Origin: Ilumatobacteraceae bacterium
GTDB lineage: Bacteria > Actinomycetota > Acidimicrobiia > Acidimicrobiales > Ilumatobacteraceae
Direction of reading: 5' to 3'
Length of the DNA stretch: 5,129 nucleotides
Assembly (NCBI GenBank): GCA_016650435.1
Contig: JAENVT010000431.1
Coordinates: 1-5,129, forward strand
Part shown: positions 2 through 5,107 of the stretch, in pieces
Position numbering within the stretch: the stretch's first letter is position 1
How the letters are laid out: every line of letters starts with the position of its first letter
Notes under the pieces: generated by a model
What the model saw: the letters and a program-made list of their open reading frames with translations, nothing else
Databases searched by the model: none
Told to the model about the DNA's origin: nothing
Made by a program: the position numbers and the translations under genes

Positions 2-559
2 ACCGACGCGACGGCTGAGCTGATTCGCGAAGTGCTCGCCGACGATCCGCTGCTGACCGTCGCCGCTGGAGCCACGGGCTCGACGCGCGGAAGTGGCGGC
101 ATGGCCTCCAAGCTCGCCGCGGCGAAGATGGCATCGTGGTCGGGGACGCGTGCGGTGATTGCGTCGGCTGACCAGCCAAACGTTCTGGTCGCCGCGGCCG
201 CGGGTGAACTGGTCGGCACGACCTTTCAGCCAGGTGTGCGTCGCATCGCGGCTCGCAAGTTGTGGATCGGCTTCGCCAGCCAAGTCGACGGCGTGATCAG
301 CGTCGACGATGGCGCCCGTCGCGCCTTGGTCGAGCGCGGCACATCGCTGCTGCCCGCCGGTGTCACCGGGGTAGTCGGCAACTTCGACGACGGCGACGTC
401 GTCGAAGTGCGAGATTCGTCGAATTCGCTCGTGGCCAGAGGCATGGTCCTCAGCGATGCGGCGACGTTGCGGGGCATCATCGGCAAGCGAACGAGCGATC
501 TACCGTCGCACGTTGCCCACGAAGTCATCCACCGCGACGACCTCGTCCTGCTGACCTAG
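2..559 (+). CDS. proB: Glutamate 5-kinase, C-terminal half (5' end cut by window edge)
   Basis: Glutamate 5-kinase phosphorylates L-glutamate with ATP to gamma-glutamyl phosphate, the first step of proline synthesis, in the cytoplasm. Only the last 185 residues are present; the family is usually about 370 residues, so roughly the first half lies left of the window. The fragment opens in frame at base 2. Residues 29-38 read RGSGGMASKL, matching the family's GTGGMxTKL nucleotide/substrate-binding motif at the end of the amino-acid kinase domain, and are followed by the TRAVIASADQPNVL strand region. From about residue 97 (GVISVDDGARRAL, then RGTSLLPAGV and VGNFDDGDVVEV) the protein is a typical PUA domain, ending in the usual IHRDDLVLL. 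The reading frame is intact to a TAG stop. It converges with the pspA-like gene across a 62-base gap. proB often follows obg and precedes proA in bacteria; proA does not follow here. Confidence 0.95.
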   Translation, partial: TDATAELIREVLADDPLLTVAAGATGSTRGSGGMASKLAAAKMASWSGTRAVIASADQPNVLVAAAAGELVGTTFQPGVRRIAARKLWIGFASQVDGVISVDDGARRALVERGTSLLPAGVTGVVGNFDDGDVVEVRDSSNSLVARGMVLSDAATLRGIIGKRTSDLPSHVAHEVIHRDDLVLLT

Positions 560-580: not shown

Positions 581-626
581 CGTGAGCCCAGGGTGAGACG
601 GCACGCCGAAGGCGTGCTGGCTCACG
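581..626. terminator. Nested inverted repeats between convergent genes, possible bidirectional terminator
   Basis: An inner perfect hairpin has the 7-base stem GCACGCC (601-607) / GGCGTGC (611-617) with a 3-base GAA loop. An outer perfect 8-base pair, CGTGAGCC (581-588) / GGCTCACG (619-626), encloses it, with a 12-base asymmetric bulge on the left. The structure sits between the proB stop and the convergent pspA-like gene and covers that gene's stop codon (622-624). There is no clear T-run on either side, so it is not a classical intrinsic terminator. The position between convergent genes favours a role in ending transcription or stabilising 3' ends. Confidence 0.45.
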
Positions 627-1419
627 CGGTGCTGGGCTTTGGCTGCTCGTCGGCAGGTGCCGCTGGTGCCGCGCCGACAGCCGGTGTGGCGACCGGAGCG
701 TCGAGACCGAGCTCGGCACGAAGTTCGCTGAGACGGCTGTGAGCCTCGATGTTGGCGGTGGCCTGCTCGACTTCGAGGATGCGCGACTCGACCGACGATT
801 CCTGCAGCTCGGACGAGGCCTTGGCCTTGACGTAGCGAGCCTCGATCTTCTGTTGCACCTCGCTGAGCGTGGGCACGTCGTCGCCGACCGTCTCCTGCAG
901 CTGCGCCATCGCCTTGTTCATCTCTTCTTGCATCTTGGCCTGATCGAGCTGCGAGAGCAGCCGGTTCTTGTCGGCAAGTTTTTGTTGCAAGATGCGGCTG
1001 TTCTGCTGCACCGCGGCCTTGGCCTGATCTGACGCCTTTGCCGACTCGAGCACCATCGTCTTCAGGCCTTCGATGTCTTTTTCGACCTGGATCAACTGGT
1101 TGGCGATGGTCTCTGCAGCGCCGTTGTACTGCGCTGCCTTCGTCGCGTCGCCGGCCTTGTCGGCATCGGAAGCCATCATCAACGCTTGACGTGCATTGGC
1201 GTTGAGCTTCTCGAGCTCTGCCATCTTGCTGTTGAGGCGCAGCTCGCCCTGCTTCTGGTTGGCAATGACGTTGGCGGCTTGTTCCTTCAGCCGCCGGTGC
1301 TGTGCCTGAGCCTCGGCGAGGGCCTGCTCGAGTTGCACGCCTGGGTCGGCGCGATTCTCAAAACTTCGGTTGAGCTTGGCGCCGAGGTACTTCCACCATT
1401 TCCGAAACGTCTTGAACAT
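622..1419 (-). CDS. pspA: PspA/IM30 (Vipp1) family envelope-stress protein
   Basis: This 265-residue protein belongs to the PspA/IM30 family, peripheral inner-membrane proteins of the ESCRT-III superfamily that form coiled-coil polymers on stressed membranes. Residues 1-20 (MFKTFRKWWKYLGAKLNRSF) form a basic, aromatic amphipathic helix suited to membrane binding. ENRADPGVQLEQAL at 21-34 matches the conserved RADP start of the first long helix. Residues 30-235 are almost wholly helical and rich in Ala, Gln, Lys and Glu, with the family's helical-hairpin appearance. Residues 240-265 are an Ala/Pro-rich flexible tail. The ATG at 1419 was chosen because it gives the canonical N-terminus; the frame stays open upstream to about 1776, but that stretch runs antiparallel-free inside murJ on the same strand and resembles nothing in PspA. 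A GGCGGAG ribosome-binding candidate overlaps the murJ stop, about 14 bases before the ATG. It is the last gene of the apparent operon, 11 bases after murJ. The family is secure; the exact stress sensed is unknown. Confidence 0.92.
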   Translation of the reverse strand: MFKTFRKWWKYLGAKLNRSFENRADPGVQLEQALAEAQAQHRRLKEQAANVIANQKQGELRLNSKMAELEKLNANARQALMMASDADKAGDATKAAQYNGAAETIANQLIQVEKDIEGLKTMVLESAKASDQAKAAVQQNSRILQQKLADKNRLLSQLDQAKMQEEMNKAMAQLQETVGDDVPTLSEVQQKIEARYVKAKASSELQESSVESRILEVEQATANIEAHSRLSELRAELGLDAPVATPAVGAAPAAPADEQPKPSTA

Positions 1420-1430
1420 GAGGGCGAATG

Positions 1431-3023
1431 CTACTCCGCCACGGTCGAACTCTGCGCTGGCCGCAGGCGGGATCGGACGTCTTCCAGTTCCGGCGAATGG
1501 AGCGCTGCCAGCATGCCCACGTAGGCCGCCGCGCCGGCAATGGTCGACACCACGACTCGCACAACCGCACCTGGTCCGGAGTTTGCGCCGACCGACCGGG
1601 CGACCACCCAAACGACCTCGGCCATCACCAACGAAGCAAGCCCCATCCGCCACAGGCTGGAGATGATGACCTGTTGGGGGAACTCCGGCAGCTTGTACCT
1701 CAGCACCTGCAACGCCCACACCGCGGAGATCACATAGGCGAGGCCGAACGCCAGTCCGAGGCCGAGCAGGCCCCATCGATCGACGAAGATCAGCGCCAGT
1801 ACGACGTTCAACAGGTTTTCGCCGAGGTTGATGACGAATGGCGTCCGGGCGTCTTGATGTGCGTAGAACACGCGCAGGACGAACAGGTAGACACTGAAGC
1901 CGACAAGACCGAGGGCGAAGCCGGCGAGTGCTCGCGATGTGTTGAGAGCATTGGCCGCGGTGAACTTGCCATGTTGAAACGCCGCACCGACGATCGCCCG
2001 TCGCAACACGAACAGGCCGAACCCTGCCGGCAAGGTGACCAGCGCGATCAACCGGATCCCGAGGGAGGATCTGTCGAGCACCATCTGGCGATCACCGCGT
2101 TTGATCGCGGTCGATAGCTCCGGGAGAAAGGTCGTGGCGATCGACACGGCCAGCAGGCCATGGGGGAGCACGAACCACGTGAACGCCTTGGTGTACGCGT
2201 CCTCGTTTCCGCTGCCGCCGCGTAACAGGTTGCGGATGACGATGATCGCTACCTGGTTGGCAACCACGTAGCCGAGTGCCCACTTCGACAGCGATCGCAG
2301 GCTCTTCACCGCTGGATGACCGAACGACGGGTTGAATCGGAATCGCAACTTGGCCTGAGCAAGCGCCGGCAGCAGCGCGAAGGCCATCACCGCGATGCCG
2401 ACCGTCGCGCCGAGGCCGAGTGTCCAGCGCAACTTGGCGTTGTCGAGGACGTCGGCGAGTTGCGGAATGCGATGTTGGACTGTGTTCGGCACAAGCAGGA
2501 GTGAGACGATGATCGCGAGGTTCGACAGAGCCGGCGCCCATGCCGCAGCGAAGAATCTCCGACGGGCGTTCAGCACGGCAGCACCGATGGCGTTGAGGCC
2601 GTAGAAGAAGATCTGCACGAGGAAGATACGGGCCAGCAGCGTGCCGGCGGCGTGGTACTGCCCGGCGTCGACCTCGCTCGATGTCAGCAACGAGTACATC
2701 CGGAAAATCAGTGGAGCGGCGACAACCGCGATCGCTGTGATGGCGGCGAGCACAATGATGCCGACAGAGATGACAGCCGACGTCGCCTCGTCGTCGTCGT
2801 CGTCGTGGAGCCGGGTGAACAGCGGCACGAGCGTGGCCGACAGCACGCCACCGAGCAACAGCTCGTAGATCATGTTCGGCGTGCCGTTGGCTTGGTCGTA
2901 CGCGTCGGTGACCGGTCCCTGGCTGAGGACAATGCCGAGGACGGCGACTCGCGCCAGACCGGTGATGCGTGAGACAGCGGTGCCAGCCGCAACCGTCACG
3001 TTGGATCGGAGCAGACTGCTCAC
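1431..3023 (-). CDS. murJ: MurJ/MviN-family lipid II flippase
   Basis: MurJ is a MOP-superfamily integral membrane protein that flips lipid II across the cytoplasmic membrane for peptidoglycan synthesis. The 530 residues are strongly hydrophobic and fit about 14 membrane segments, the usual size of a bare MurJ core. Diagnostic stretches are SRITGLARVAVLG (18-30), TDAYDQANGTPN (39-50), GGVLSATLVPLF (58-69), LPHGLLAVSIATTFLPELS (286-304), FQHGKFTA (349-356) and FYAHQDARTP (386-395). Arg19, Arg25 and Asp40 line up with conserved E. coli residues R18, R24 and D39. There is no C-terminal pseudokinase extension such as mycobacterial MviN carries. A run of five Asp plus Glu (74-79) sits in the loop after the second membrane segment. 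The start is GTG, overlapping the stop of the preceding gene as GTGA, which suggests translational coupling; the nearest AGGA is about 17 bases upstream. It might be the main lipid II flippase or a paralogue, which this window cannot decide. Confidence 0.93.
   Translation of the reverse strand: MSSLLRSNVTVAAGTAVSRITGLARVAVLGIVLSQGPVTDAYDQANGTPNMIYELLLGGVLSATLVPLFTRLHDDDDDEATSAVISVGIIVLAAITAIAVVAAPLIFRMYSLLTSSEVDAGQYHAAGTLLARIFLVQIFFYGLNAIGAAVLNARRRFFAAAWAPALSNLAIIVSLLLVPNTVQHRIPQLADVLDNAKLRWTLGLGATVGIAVMAFALLPALAQAKLRFRFNPSFGHPAVKSLRSLSKWALGYVVANQVAIIVIRNLLRGGSGNEDAYTKAFTWFVLPHGLLAVSIATTFLPELSTAIKRGDRQMVLDRSSLGIRLIALVTLPAGFGLFVLRRAIVGAAFQHGKFTAANALNTSRALAGFALGLVGFSVYLFVLRVFYAHQDARTPFVINLGENLLNVVLALIFVDRWGLLGLGLAFGLAYVISAVWALQVLRYKLPEFPQQVIISSLWRMGLASLVMAEVVWVVARSVGANSGPGAVVRVVVSTIAGAAAYVGMLAALHSPELEDVRSRLRPAQSSTVAE
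2788..2805. repeat. Six-copy TCG trinucleotide repeat inside murJ
   Basis: TCG is repeated six times without interruption on the plus strand. On the coding (minus) strand this gives most of the Asp run in the predicted cytoplasmic loop of MurJ (residues 74-79). Length changes would stay in frame and alter only the number of acidic residues. Confidence 0.85.
3020..3023 (-). promoter_or_regulatory. GTGA stop/start overlap (translational coupling)
   Basis: The TGA stop of the small membrane protein gene shares bases with the GTG start of murJ. With the nearest AGGA about 17 bases upstream of the GTG, murJ translation probably depends largely on ribosomes finishing the upstream gene, which would tie the amounts of the two proteins together. 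Confidence 0.7.
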
Positions 3024-3682
3024 GGCGATGGGGATGCCTGTCCTGCGCCGCCGGGGCGCGGGTTGTTGACGTCGTCGAGAGCCAGGCGAAGCGATTCGAG
3101 TTGGGTCACGACGTCGTCGACGGCACTGCCGAGATCTCCGGTGGTATCGGCGCCAACGCTGACCTCGGCGGCGTGTGCCAGTAGCTCGCCGAGGCGGGTA
3201 TTGAGCAGCCGCAGTCGCTGATCGGTGTTGTCGCGTGTCGAACGGATTCGCTGCGCGGAATCGAGTTGGGCTTGCAGCGAGACACGCGTCGCATCGTCGG
3301 TGGACAGCTCCAGACGCGTTCGCAGCGAGACGCTGTCGAGGCGGTTGAGCGCGGCATCAAGTTCATCGCCGCGTTTGGCGATGAACCAGCACTCCTCGAC
3401 TCCGCGCTGCACCTGACGAGTGATCGACTCCATGTTCGAACGCAACGGGCCGGCTGGTGTGGCCGCGACGATTTCTTTGTAGCGGCGTTGCGCGGCCTGC
3501 GCGGCGCTGACCGATCGACGCCACGGTTCGCTGAGCACGAACGGGTCGATCGCGATAGCGCGTTGCGGCGGTCGGCGCCGGCGAAGCACCGCGGTGATCG
3601 CGACGACTGCGGCCACACCTACGGCGACGAGTGCTGCCGTCATGGCCGAACCGACATGCAACAGCCCAACATAGGCAAGCAC
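3020..3682 (-). CDS. Unrecognised single-pass membrane protein with long helical cytoplasmic part
   Basis: I do not recognise the family of this 220-residue protein. Residues about 11-33 form one hydrophobic Ala/Val-rich membrane segment, followed directly by RRRR (34-37), so the positive-inside rule predicts a short outer N-terminus and a cytoplasmic remainder. Residues about 52-205 are charged, rich in Ala, Leu, Arg, Gln and Asp, and look helical or coiled-coil (for example AQAAQRRYKEIV at 61-72 and RLRLLNTRLGELLAHAAEV at 156-174). Residues 207-220 are a Pro/Gly/Ser tail. The longest start is GTG at 3682, 12 bases after the AAA+ gene. An ATG at 3643 (residue 14) would leave just the membrane segment at the N-terminus and is equally possible; neither has a good Shine-Dalgarno sequence. 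The stop overlaps the murJ start by four bases. Location and architecture suggest a membrane anchor or partner for the neighbouring AAA+ or PspA proteins, loosely like PspM of mycobacteria, but no homology is claimed. Confidence 0.8.
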   Translation of the reverse strand: MLAYVGLLHVGSAMTAALVAVGVAAVVAITAVLRRRRPPQRAIAIDPFVLSEPWRRSVSAAQAAQRRYKEIVAATPAGPLRSNMESITRQVQRGVEECWFIAKRGDELDAALNRLDSVSLRTRLELSTDDATRVSLQAQLDSAQRIRSTRDNTDQRLRLLNTRLGELLAHAAEVSVGADTTGDLGSAVDDVVTQLESLRLALDDVNNPRPGGAGQASPSP

Positions 3683-3694
3683 GGTAATCGGTGG

Positions 3695-5107
3695 TCAGGC
3701 ATCGACGGCGGCGATGTCGGCGACAGTCAGCGTGGTGAGCTGTTCGTCGCTCGGATCGCTGAGCGGTGCGACCCTCTGCGCCTGATGCGCAATTGCCGTT
3801 TCGAAGAGGTTGCGCACAAAGCGAGCGTTGCCGAATCCACGCGATCGCGGCTCGGTGCTGACGAAGTGGCGAACTCGAGCAAGGGCATCGTCGCTGCAGC
3901 AGTACTGACTCTTCTCGCCAAGACCCAAGAAGATGGCGACCAGTTCGTCGTCGGTGTAATCGGGGAACGAGATGGTGCGGGTGAATCGGCTCTTCAGACC
4001 GGGATTGGCTTCGATGAAGTCGGCCATCTCCTCGGTGTAGCCGGCGGCCACGATCGCCAGGTCGTCGCGGTGATCTTCCATGAACTTCACGAGCGTGTCG
4101 ATCGCCTCGCGTCCGAAATCGTTGTCACCGCCACGAGCCAGCGAATATGCCTCGTCGATCAGCAACATTCCCCCGAGTGCCGACTGCAATGTCTCCAATG
4201 TCTTGATCGCGGTCTGGCCTACGAAGCCCGCAACGAGCTTCGATCGATCGGTCTCGACTAGATGCCCTTTGTCGACGACGCCGACTGCACGGTAGGTCTG
4301 GCTGAGCAGACGCGCGACGGTTGTCTTGCCGGTGCCAGGATTGCCAGTGAATACAAGATGGTGACTGGTCTCGATCACCGGCAGCCCGCGTTCGGCGCGG
4401 ATTTGTTGCACTTGCAACATGCTTGTGAGTCGGCGAACTTCGGCCTTTACGTTGGCGAGCCCGATCAAGCCATCGAGCTCGGCCATCACGTCGGCGACAG
4501 AGCGCGCCGGTGGAAGCACTGGCTCCGGCGCAACAGGCACCGTCGCGGCAGTCGCCGTTGCGCGCGGCGGGGTGCTGGTGACGGGGGTTGGTTGACGTAC
4601 CGCGTGGTCGGGCTGTCCGGGTCTGGCGACGCCTGCCTCGTCCATCGCCTGCAGCAATCTGGTGCGGTACGCATCGATCGCTTCGATCTCGTCCAACGAG
4701 GGAACGAGGTCGGTAGCCGCGGTGACGTGTGCCAGCCGCAGGGCGTACTCGTAGTAGCGGTTGCTGCGGCGCGTGCCGTCTCGGTGATCCGCTTTCACGA
4801 GAAGATCGAACAACACACTCGGCTCCGACAGCCATGCATCTCGACGACTGAAGAGATCGGTCTCGCGAACATGTGCCGCGCTGGTCAGTAGTGGTGGGTC
4901 GAGCAACGGTCCGATCGTGTCGAGGTAGGCGTCGAGTTCGCTGTCGGTCAGCCGGCCGTCGGCGGCGATGATCGCGGCAACCAAGTTGCTCGCCTCGATG
5001 ACCCCATCGGCGGCATGATCCGCTGTGGGCCGCCCACTCAACGAGCCGAGTTCGGCGGCGATCCCATCGATGAACTCCTCGACGTCTCGTTGCATCGGGT
5101 TGGGCAT
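3695..5107 (-). CDS. CbbX/SpoVK-type AAA+ ATPase with TerB-like N-terminal domain
   Basis: This 470-residue protein has three parts. Residues about 1-160 are helical and TerB-like: AAIIAADGRLTDSELDAYL (44-62) carries the DGxxxxxE pattern typical of TerB, and a weaker second copy, HVTAATDLVPSLDEIEAIDAY, follows at 127-147. Residues 161-203 are a Pro/Ala/Thr linker. Residues 204-470 are an AAA+ module of the CbbX/SpoVK/EccA clade, starting with LDGLIGLANVKAEVRRL (211-227). Walker A is GNPGTGKT (255-262, Lys261); the pore-loop region is LVAGFVGQT (291-299); Walker B is MLLIDEA (314-320, Asp318 and Glu319); the sensor-1 region is AIVAAGY (351-357); NPGLKSRF (368-375) holds the likely arginine finger Arg374; GFGNARFVRN (424-433) is the sensor-2 region. 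All key ATPase residues are intact. The ATG at 5107 is the longest start; a second ATG at 5095 (residue 5) is possible, and neither has a clear Shine-Dalgarno sequence. It is the first visible gene of the operon. Such ATPases remodel protein assemblies; the substrate here is unknown. Confidence 0.88.
   Translation of the reverse strand: MPNPMQRDVEEFIDGIAAELGSLSGRPTADHAADGVIEASNLVAAIIAADGRLTDSELDAYLDTIGPLLDPPLLTSAAHVRETDLFSRRDAWLSEPSVLFDLLVKADHRDGTRRSNRYYEYALRLAHVTAATDLVPSLDEIEAIDAYRTRLLQAMDEAGVARPGQPDHAVRQPTPVTSTPPRATATAATVPVAPEPVLPPARSVADVMAELDGLIGLANVKAEVRRLTSMLQVQQIRAERGLPVIETSHHLVFTGNPGTGKTTVARLLSQTYRAVGVVDKGHLVETDRSKLVAGFVGQTAIKTLETLQSALGGMLLIDEAYSLARGGDNDFGREAIDTLVKFMEDHRDDLAIVAAGYTEEMADFIEANPGLKSRFTRTISFPDYTDDELVAIFLGLGEKSQYCCSDDALARVRHFVSTEPRSRGFGNARFVRNLFETAIAHQAQRVAPLSDPSDEQLTTLTVADIAAVDA

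What the first reader, a model, noticed from the sequence alone, without database searches (positions are those of the whole stretch)
622..5107. TerB-AAA+ / membrane helical protein / MurJ / PspA operon as a candidate envelope-stress module
Four minus-strand genes are packed with gaps of 12, -4 and 11 bases. They join an AAA+ ATPase with a TerB-like domain, an unrecognised membrane-anchored helical protein, the lipid II flippase and an ESCRT-III-like PspA. PspA is known to protect stressed membranes and TerB domains occur in envelope-linked stress systems, but this layout with the lipid II flippase in the middle is not one I know as a described system. Inference: the operon couples lipid II export to membrane repair, with the AAA+ protein acting on PspA polymers or the anchor.
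Basis: partly seen in the sequence, partly recalled or inferred. Interest (0 to 1): 0.7.

Follow-up and report, generated by a model that had tools for sequence, protein, structure and literature searches.

The report
PspA operon with CbbX-type ATPase
In a little-studied group of bacteria the gene for the membrane-repair protein PspA keeps company with a ring-shaped ATP-driven motor protein, a new membrane-anchored helical protein and, in some lineages, the cell-wall precursor flippase, which points to a so far undescribed form of envelope-maintenance system.

Summary
The four packed minus-strand genes are real: a CbbX/SpoVK/EccA-clade AAA+ ATPase (3695-5107), a membrane-anchored helical protein of no known family (ORF2, most likely 3020-3643), MurJ (1431-3023) and PspA (622-1419). 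Named relatives are mostly Ilumatobacteraceae.

The order is conserved: of 25 informative loci in that family, 23 have MurJ-PspA downstream of the AAA+ gene and 21 have ORF2. In 148 genomes of the class, all 15 that carry this AAA+ protein with its N-domain have their only PspA in the same cluster; MurJ is inside in 8 of the 15.

Other members of the class, and three Ilumatobacteraceae, carry extra genes between AAA+ and ORF2: a membrane-anchored solute-binding-like protein and an exported solute-binding/VWA protein. The stable unit is AAA+, ORF2 and PspA; MurJ is optional; the window lacks the exported pair.

TerB identity of the N-domain was not supported by sequence. Best reading (inferred): an ATP-driven chaperone for PspA polymers docked by ORF2, with envelope sensing by the exported proteins where present. 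The papers searched did not describe this layout. Verdict: new variant of a known kind, PspA/AAA+ envelope systems.

The parts
3695..5107 (-). AAA+ ATPase, 470 aa, SpoVK/CbbX/EccA clade
   Evidence: PF00004 and PF17866 over cut-off; best NCBIfam hits SpoVK, EccA and CbbX, all below their equivalog cut-offs; CbbX and EccA1 in the PDB by sequence; model aligns best to CbbX
4628..5107 (-).
   Evidence: helices 4-24, 28-50, 55-64, 77-82, 89-94, 98-110, 114-133, 138-158 in the model; no PF05099 match; hhalign against TerB 0.6%
3020..3643 (-). ORF2, 207 aa: one N-terminal hydrophobic helix, then an arginine-rich stretch and a helical domain (residues 41-193)
   Evidence: start by homologues; model mean pLDDT 84.6; window protein has no Pfam or NCBIfam match over a cut-off
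1431..3023 (-). MurJ lipid II flippase, 530 aa
   Evidence: TIGR01695 and PF03023 over cut-off
622..1419 (-). PspA/IM30 (bacterial ESCRT-III family), 265 aa
   Evidence: PF04012 over cut-off
625..702 (-). Ala/Pro-rich C-terminal tail of PspA (about residues 240-265)
   Evidence: alignment and tail comparison
601..617 (-). GC-rich hairpin after pspA, without a T-run, between convergent genes
   Evidence: sequence and fold
2..559 (+). 3' part of proB (glutamate 5-kinase, PUA domain), convergent neighbour, not part of the system
   Evidence: PF01472, TIGR01027 match to profile positions 178-362

Best explanation
The operon encodes a PspA module powered by an AAA+ chaperone. Shown: the gene order and its conservation; intact ATPase motifs; ORF2 as a helical protein with an N-terminal membrane helix (predicted); a PspA with a long tail; exported SBP and SBP-VWA partners in the fuller versions; MurJ optional. 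Inferred: ORF2 docks PspA or the AAA+ ring at the inner face of the membrane; the ring engages PspA, perhaps by its tail, and remodels or recycles PspA polymers on a stressed membrane, as Vps4 does with ESCRT-III. Where present, the exported SBP and SBP-VWA proteins report on the envelope. In the window's lineage MurJ is co-expressed, so lipid II export and membrane upkeep share one supply; contact with MurJ is not required.
For: All 15 of 148 class genomes with the N-domain AAA+ have their only PspA in its cluster. ORF2 is there in 14 of 15. In L030 the AAA+ gene directly precedes pspA, without ORF2 or MurJ. Seven of 11 informative extra loci of the phylum sample also have ORF2-PspA downstream. 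The clade is described as narrow-target chaperones (PMC10659427, passages), and PspA/AAA+ neighbourhoods are read as ATP-dependent membrane remodelling (PMC11237479, passages). Invariant G356-Y357, N368, R374 and R429, and the Walker motif residues, are consistent with a working ATPase (motif names recalled). PspA tails are 17-45 residues in the 15 genomes (median 28) against a median of 15 in 44 others.
Against: No interaction or activity was tested. Four of 11 informative extra loci have the AAA+ without PspA or ORF2 nearby (L045, L046, L055, L056), as do L065 and L075 in the family, which lack PspA nearby. ORF2 and PspA also occur in clusters without this AAA+ (L036, L037, L038, L043). Long PspA tails also occur without the AAA+ (5 loci with ORF2: 30-64 residues; others up to 141), and the test ignores relatedness. 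Two family loci keep AAA+-MurJ-PspA but have lost ORF2 (L060, L066). Tree distances of AAA+ correlate with MurJ as strongly as with PspA (both 0.90).
Confidence: 0.42

Rival explanations
1. The AAA+ protein is a dedicated chaperone for cell-wall precursor enzymes or for MurJ itself, as SpoVK is for MurG; PspA is a separate membrane-repair gene on the same transcript.
For: SpoVK, the closest NCBIfam model (295.1 bits, below its cut-off of 422.95), activates MurG (PMC10659427, abstract and passages). MurJ follows in 23 of 25 informative family loci, also in two that lack ORF2 (L060, L066). AAA+ and MurJ tree distances correlate at 0.90.
Against: MurJ lies outside the cluster in 7 of 15 class genomes while PspA never does. 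L030 pairs the AAA+ with PspA alone.
Confidence: 0.17
2. The AAA+ protein serves the exported SBP/VWA proteins, or a wider VWA-based complex, and PspA is only the local membrane guard of that assembly; the window keeps a reduced version.
For: SBP-VWA lies between AAA+ and ORF2 in 10 of 15 class loci and beside ORF2 where the AAA+ is absent (L028, L036, L037, L038). L075 and L051 show AAA+, SBP and SBP-VWA (in L051 the contig ends there). A MoxR-type AAA and a CoxE-like VWA gene pair lies upstream in part of the loci.
Against: The exported pair is missing in most family loci, including the window type, without loss of AAA+ and PspA. VWA and AAA+ would sit on opposite sides of the membrane (inference from the signal-like N-termini).
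Confidence: 0.15
3. The cluster is a convenient transcript of unrelated housekeeping genes without functional coupling.
For: The convergent neighbour proB is also widely conserved. The tree distances of all genes, proB included, correlate, which joint descent alone explains. MurJ and inserted genes come and go.
Against: The AAA+/PspA link survives changes of every other member and persists at about 41-60% identity, with and without proB nearby.
Confidence: 0.17

Closest known systems
PspA and Snf7 neighbourhoods with AAA+ ATPases in PMC11237479 (passages read)
   Same: A PspA/ESCRT-III-family gene beside an AAA+ gene, sometimes with membrane and solute-binding proteins; read there as ATP-dependent membrane remodelling.
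   Different: Those described are Vps4-like, a protein with two AAA+ domains, or an AAA+ with coiled-coil and beta-propeller. Its main text does not contain the words MurJ, MviN, flippase, TerB, Acidimicrobi-, vWA or von Willebrand. Its supplementary tables were not read.
SpoVK/CbbX/EccA AAA+ clade (PMC10659427, abstract and passages)
   Same: AAA+ core, GY signature, conserved Asn and second Arg; variable N-terminal domains that may recruit a dedicated target; SpoVK acts on the wall enzyme MurG.
   Different: Different N-domain, no match over any of the three equivalog cut-offs, and linkage to PspA, which is not mentioned in that paper (0 occurrences).
Actinobacterial Psp operon clgR-pspA-pspM-pspN (PMC11237479, passages)
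   Same: PspA with a small membrane protein in an actinobacterium.
   Different: No ClgR or PspN seen. PspM is described as having two TM helices and as restricted to mycobacteria and corynebacteria; ORF2 has one (some relatives look as if they have two). ORF2 and PspM were not compared directly.
Vps4/ESCRT-III
   Same: Proposed working principle: a motor acting on a membrane polymer.
   Different: CbbX-clade ATPase with another N-domain instead of an MIT domain.

Membership tests
PspA/IM30 (PF04012) | whole-domain match over the curated cut-off | tested here: met
   102.3 bits against 33.9, profile positions 3-218 of 220
MurJ (TIGR01695) | equivalog score over cut-off | tested here: met
   281.1 against 235.55 bits
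MurJ (TIGR01695) | lipid II flippase activity | not testable with these tools
   needs an assay or complementation
SpoVK/CbbX/EccA AAA+ clade | GY signature at sensor 1 | tested here: met
   G356-Y357 invariant in 27 rows; feature from PMC10659427
SpoVK/CbbX/EccA AAA+ clade | Asn four residues upstream of the first Arg finger | tested here: inconclusive
   N368 and R374 invariant, but which Arg is the finger was not determined
SpoVK/CbbX/EccA AAA+ clade | second Arg finger (sensor 2) | tested here: inconclusive
   R429 and R432 invariant; the assignment to sensor 2 is recalled
SpoVK, CbbX or EccA proper | NCBIfam equivalog cut-off | tested here: not met
   295.1/422.95, 225.9/459.25 and 247.8/466.65 bits
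TerB (PF05099) | sequence-profile match of the N-domain | tested here: not met
   0 of 19 N-domains; hhalign 0.6%; in 60 class genomes the 7 PF05099 matches lie at other loci
TerB (PF05099) | TerB fold | not tested
PspM (Rv2743c) | homology to PspM | not tested
   no PspM sequence was at hand; no PspM model appeared among the NCBIfam rows shown
Vps4/ESCRT-III-like working | AAA+ binds and remodels the polymer | not testable with these tools
   needs biochemistry
Psp envelope stress response | induction of the operon by envelope stress | not testable with these tools
   needs expression data; no sigma-70-like site in the window, and the upstream region is outside it

The most novel reading that the evidence does not exclude
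A trans-envelope control system in which exported solute-binding/VWA proteins work through a new membrane-anchored helical protein and a CbbX-clade ATPase that disassembles or redeploys PspA: a bacterial ESCRT-III polymer with its own dedicated motor, recruited independently of Vps4. The window's lineage has dropped the exported part and locked the lipid II flippase into the operon, tying motor-driven membrane repair to wall-precursor export.
Probability: 0.25. Interest if true: 0.85.

Novelty: new variant of a known kind. Interest (0 to 1): 0.58.

Why it matters
[quoted passage not shown] A conserved, compact operon with one CbbX-clade ATPase beside the genome's only PspA allows a direct test of whether some bacteria power PspA turnover with a dedicated motor. 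It also defines an unnamed membrane protein family (ORF2) and exported partners in a class of actinobacteria, and shows lineages in which the lipid II flippase is locked into a PspA operon.

Tried and rejected

Rows left out: one search used 59 of the 63 PspA matches over cut-off (G030, G078, G090 and G098 were not fetched). In one search, 13 of 88 sequences gave no PspA by the window query, all of them loci without this AAA+. In the family count 4 of 29 loci (L057, L077, L078, L079) were dropped because the contig ends; in the phylum count 2 of 13 (L044, L051). The 1.5 kb insert was identified in L017 only; L067, L071, L073 and L076 have one of similar size. Genome completeness was not told, so absences may in part be gaps in assemblies.
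Full report

Where it comes from. No genome is held for the window. Close ORF2 and AAA+ homologues that carry an organism name are mostly Ilumatobacteraceae metagenome-assembled genomes. A genome scan with ORF2 gave four loci: two named Ilumatobacteraceae, one Actinomycetota, one Acidimicrobiales. The first three keep AAA+, ORF2, MurJ, PspA and convergent proB; the fourth, L004, has AAA+, ORF2 and PspA without MurJ.

Conservation in the family. A sample of 101 genomes of the family of G001 had 46 with an AAA+ match, 27 of them near full length, plus two cut by contig ends. Of these 29 loci, 25 have enough downstream sequence (with L001, L002, L016, L017 and L019 from earlier calls). MurJ and PspA follow in the same direction in 23 of 25, and ORF2 is present in 21 of 25. 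The 23 divide into 12 with the window layout and nothing recognised in between, 5 with an insert of about 1.5 kb between AAA+ and ORF2 (an acyl-CoA dehydrogenase in L017, the one tested), 1 with a fragment of the SBP gene (L019), 3 with SBP-VWA (L063, L064, L069) and 2 without ORF2 (L060, L066). The remaining two are L065 (AAA+ alone) and L075 (AAA+, SBP, SBP-VWA, no PspA in the stretch).

Conservation in the class. Of 148 genomes of the class, 29 had an AAA+ match and 15 of these include the N-domain. PF04012 was found in 65 of 148, 63 over cut-off. In all 15 genomes with the N-domain AAA+, the single PspA match lies in the same cluster. ORF2 was found in 20 of 148 genomes and is in the cluster in 14 of the 15; in G150 the AAA+ gene directly precedes pspA (L030). 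MurJ was found in 142 of 148 and lies between ORF2 and PspA in 8 of the 15. In G047 the cluster's MurJ is the only PF03023 match of the genome; in G052 and G076 the only one lies elsewhere. So AAA+, ORF2 and PspA are the stable part, and MurJ is optional.

The partners missing from the window. A SBP-VWA gene lies between AAA+ and ORF2 in 10 of the 15 loci, with a membrane-anchored SBP-like gene detected beside it in 9. The longer protein has SBP_bac_11 and VWA domains with a conserved DxSGSM motif and, in 5 of 7 aligned copies, a lipobox-like cysteine (motif names recalled). These genes also sit beside ORF2 where the AAA+ is absent (L028, L036, L037, L038). The order AAA+, SBP, SBP-VWA, ORF2, MurJ, PspA is seen in L020, L022, L029, L064 and L069 and, with the SBP gene not detected by my search, in L021; in L063 a second ORF2 precedes the SBP gene. 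L019 keeps a 120-residue piece of the SBP gene between ORF2 and MurJ. SBP-VWA was not found in full in G001, G006, G031 or G047, which have the window layout or a variant of it. I infer that the window form arose by loss of the exported pair, perhaps by recombination between two ORF2 copies. On the opposite strand upstream of the AAA+ gene, a MoxR-type AAA gene was found in 20 of 50 AAA+ loci, in 15 with a CoxE-like VWA gene; the pair was typed by Pfam in L017 only. Some loci end too soon to tell, and so does the window.

Beyond the class sample. A phylum sample of 346 genomes had 79 with a match and added 13 loci with the N-domain. Two run into a contig end. Of the other 11, seven have ORF2 and PspA downstream, six of these with SBP-VWA, and none has MurJ in the cluster; four have neither PspA nor ORF2 nearby. 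The AAA+ family is thus wider than the PspA system.

PspA tail. In the 15 AAA+ genomes PspA ends in a tail of 17-45 residues past the Pfam match (median 28); in 44 PspA of genomes without this AAA+ the median is 15 (range 2-141; Mann-Whitney p 0.0013, not corrected for relatedness). Five of the 44 lie near ORF2 and have tails of 30-64. The tail is compatible with a handle for an AAA+ ring but marks the module rather than the AAA+ itself.

Mechanism. The SpoVK/CbbX/EccA clade is described as chaperones with narrow targets, and SpoVK as an activator of MurG (PMC10659427, abstract and passages). PspA/AAA+ neighbourhoods are read as ATP-dependent membrane remodelling in PMC11237479 (passages). From linkage, PspA is the likeliest target and ORF2 the likeliest membrane dock. 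A chaperone for MurJ or wall enzymes is the main rival because of SpoVK, but in the class sample MurJ is the gene most often missing of those the window shares with relatives. None of this was tested by experiment.

Novelty. An AAA+ partner beside PspA is a known kind. The combination seen here, a CbbX-clade motor with its own N-domain, ORF2, optional exported SBP and SBP-VWA proteins and optional MurJ, did not turn up in the listings of the paper searches or in the passages read. The supplementary tables of PMC11237479 were not read and may list part of it. I therefore score it as a new variant of a known kind.

Noticed in passing
L017 9808-12207 and the upstream side of 20 of 50 AAA+ loci: A MoxR-type AAA gene, in 15 of these loci with a CoxE-like VWA gene (PF05762 in L017), lies on the opposite strand upstream of the AAA+ gene; it also occurs near ORF2-MurJ-PspA in L043 and, MoxR only, near MurJ-PspA in L092. 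In L017 the two match NCBIfam MadB and MadC below their cut-offs.
   Followed up: partly
L031 5440-6003 and L032 5630-6217: Genomes G111 and G114 hold a second, unlinked ORF2 copy, without PspA, AAA+ or SBP-VWA recognised nearby.
   Followed up: no
L063 3365-6809: ORF2 is duplicated on both sides of the SBP and SBP-VWA genes.
   Followed up: partly
L052 6855-9167: A gene with a protein kinase domain and PQQ-type repeats lies on the opposite strand between the AAA+ gene and the SBP gene; genes with a similar start lie there in L051 and L053 (by eye).
   Followed up: no
L037 5579-7287: In a cluster without the AAA+, a Peripla_BP_6 gene and a small gene lie between ORF2 and PspA.
   Followed up: no
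L017 7076-8362: An acyl-CoA dehydrogenase gene is inserted between AAA+ and ORF2; L067, L071, L073 and L076 have a gap of similar size.
   Followed up: partly
L040 9333-10100: A 255-residue protein after SBP and SBP-VWA, with an N-terminus that by eye resembles the longer ORF2 relatives, not found by the ORF2 profile and without a Pfam match.
   Followed up: no
window 601-617: A strong GC hairpin without a T-run lies between the convergent pspA and proB genes.
   Followed up: partly
L080 (G530): The MurJ match is split over three frames, so the gene or the contig carries frame disruptions.
   Followed up: no
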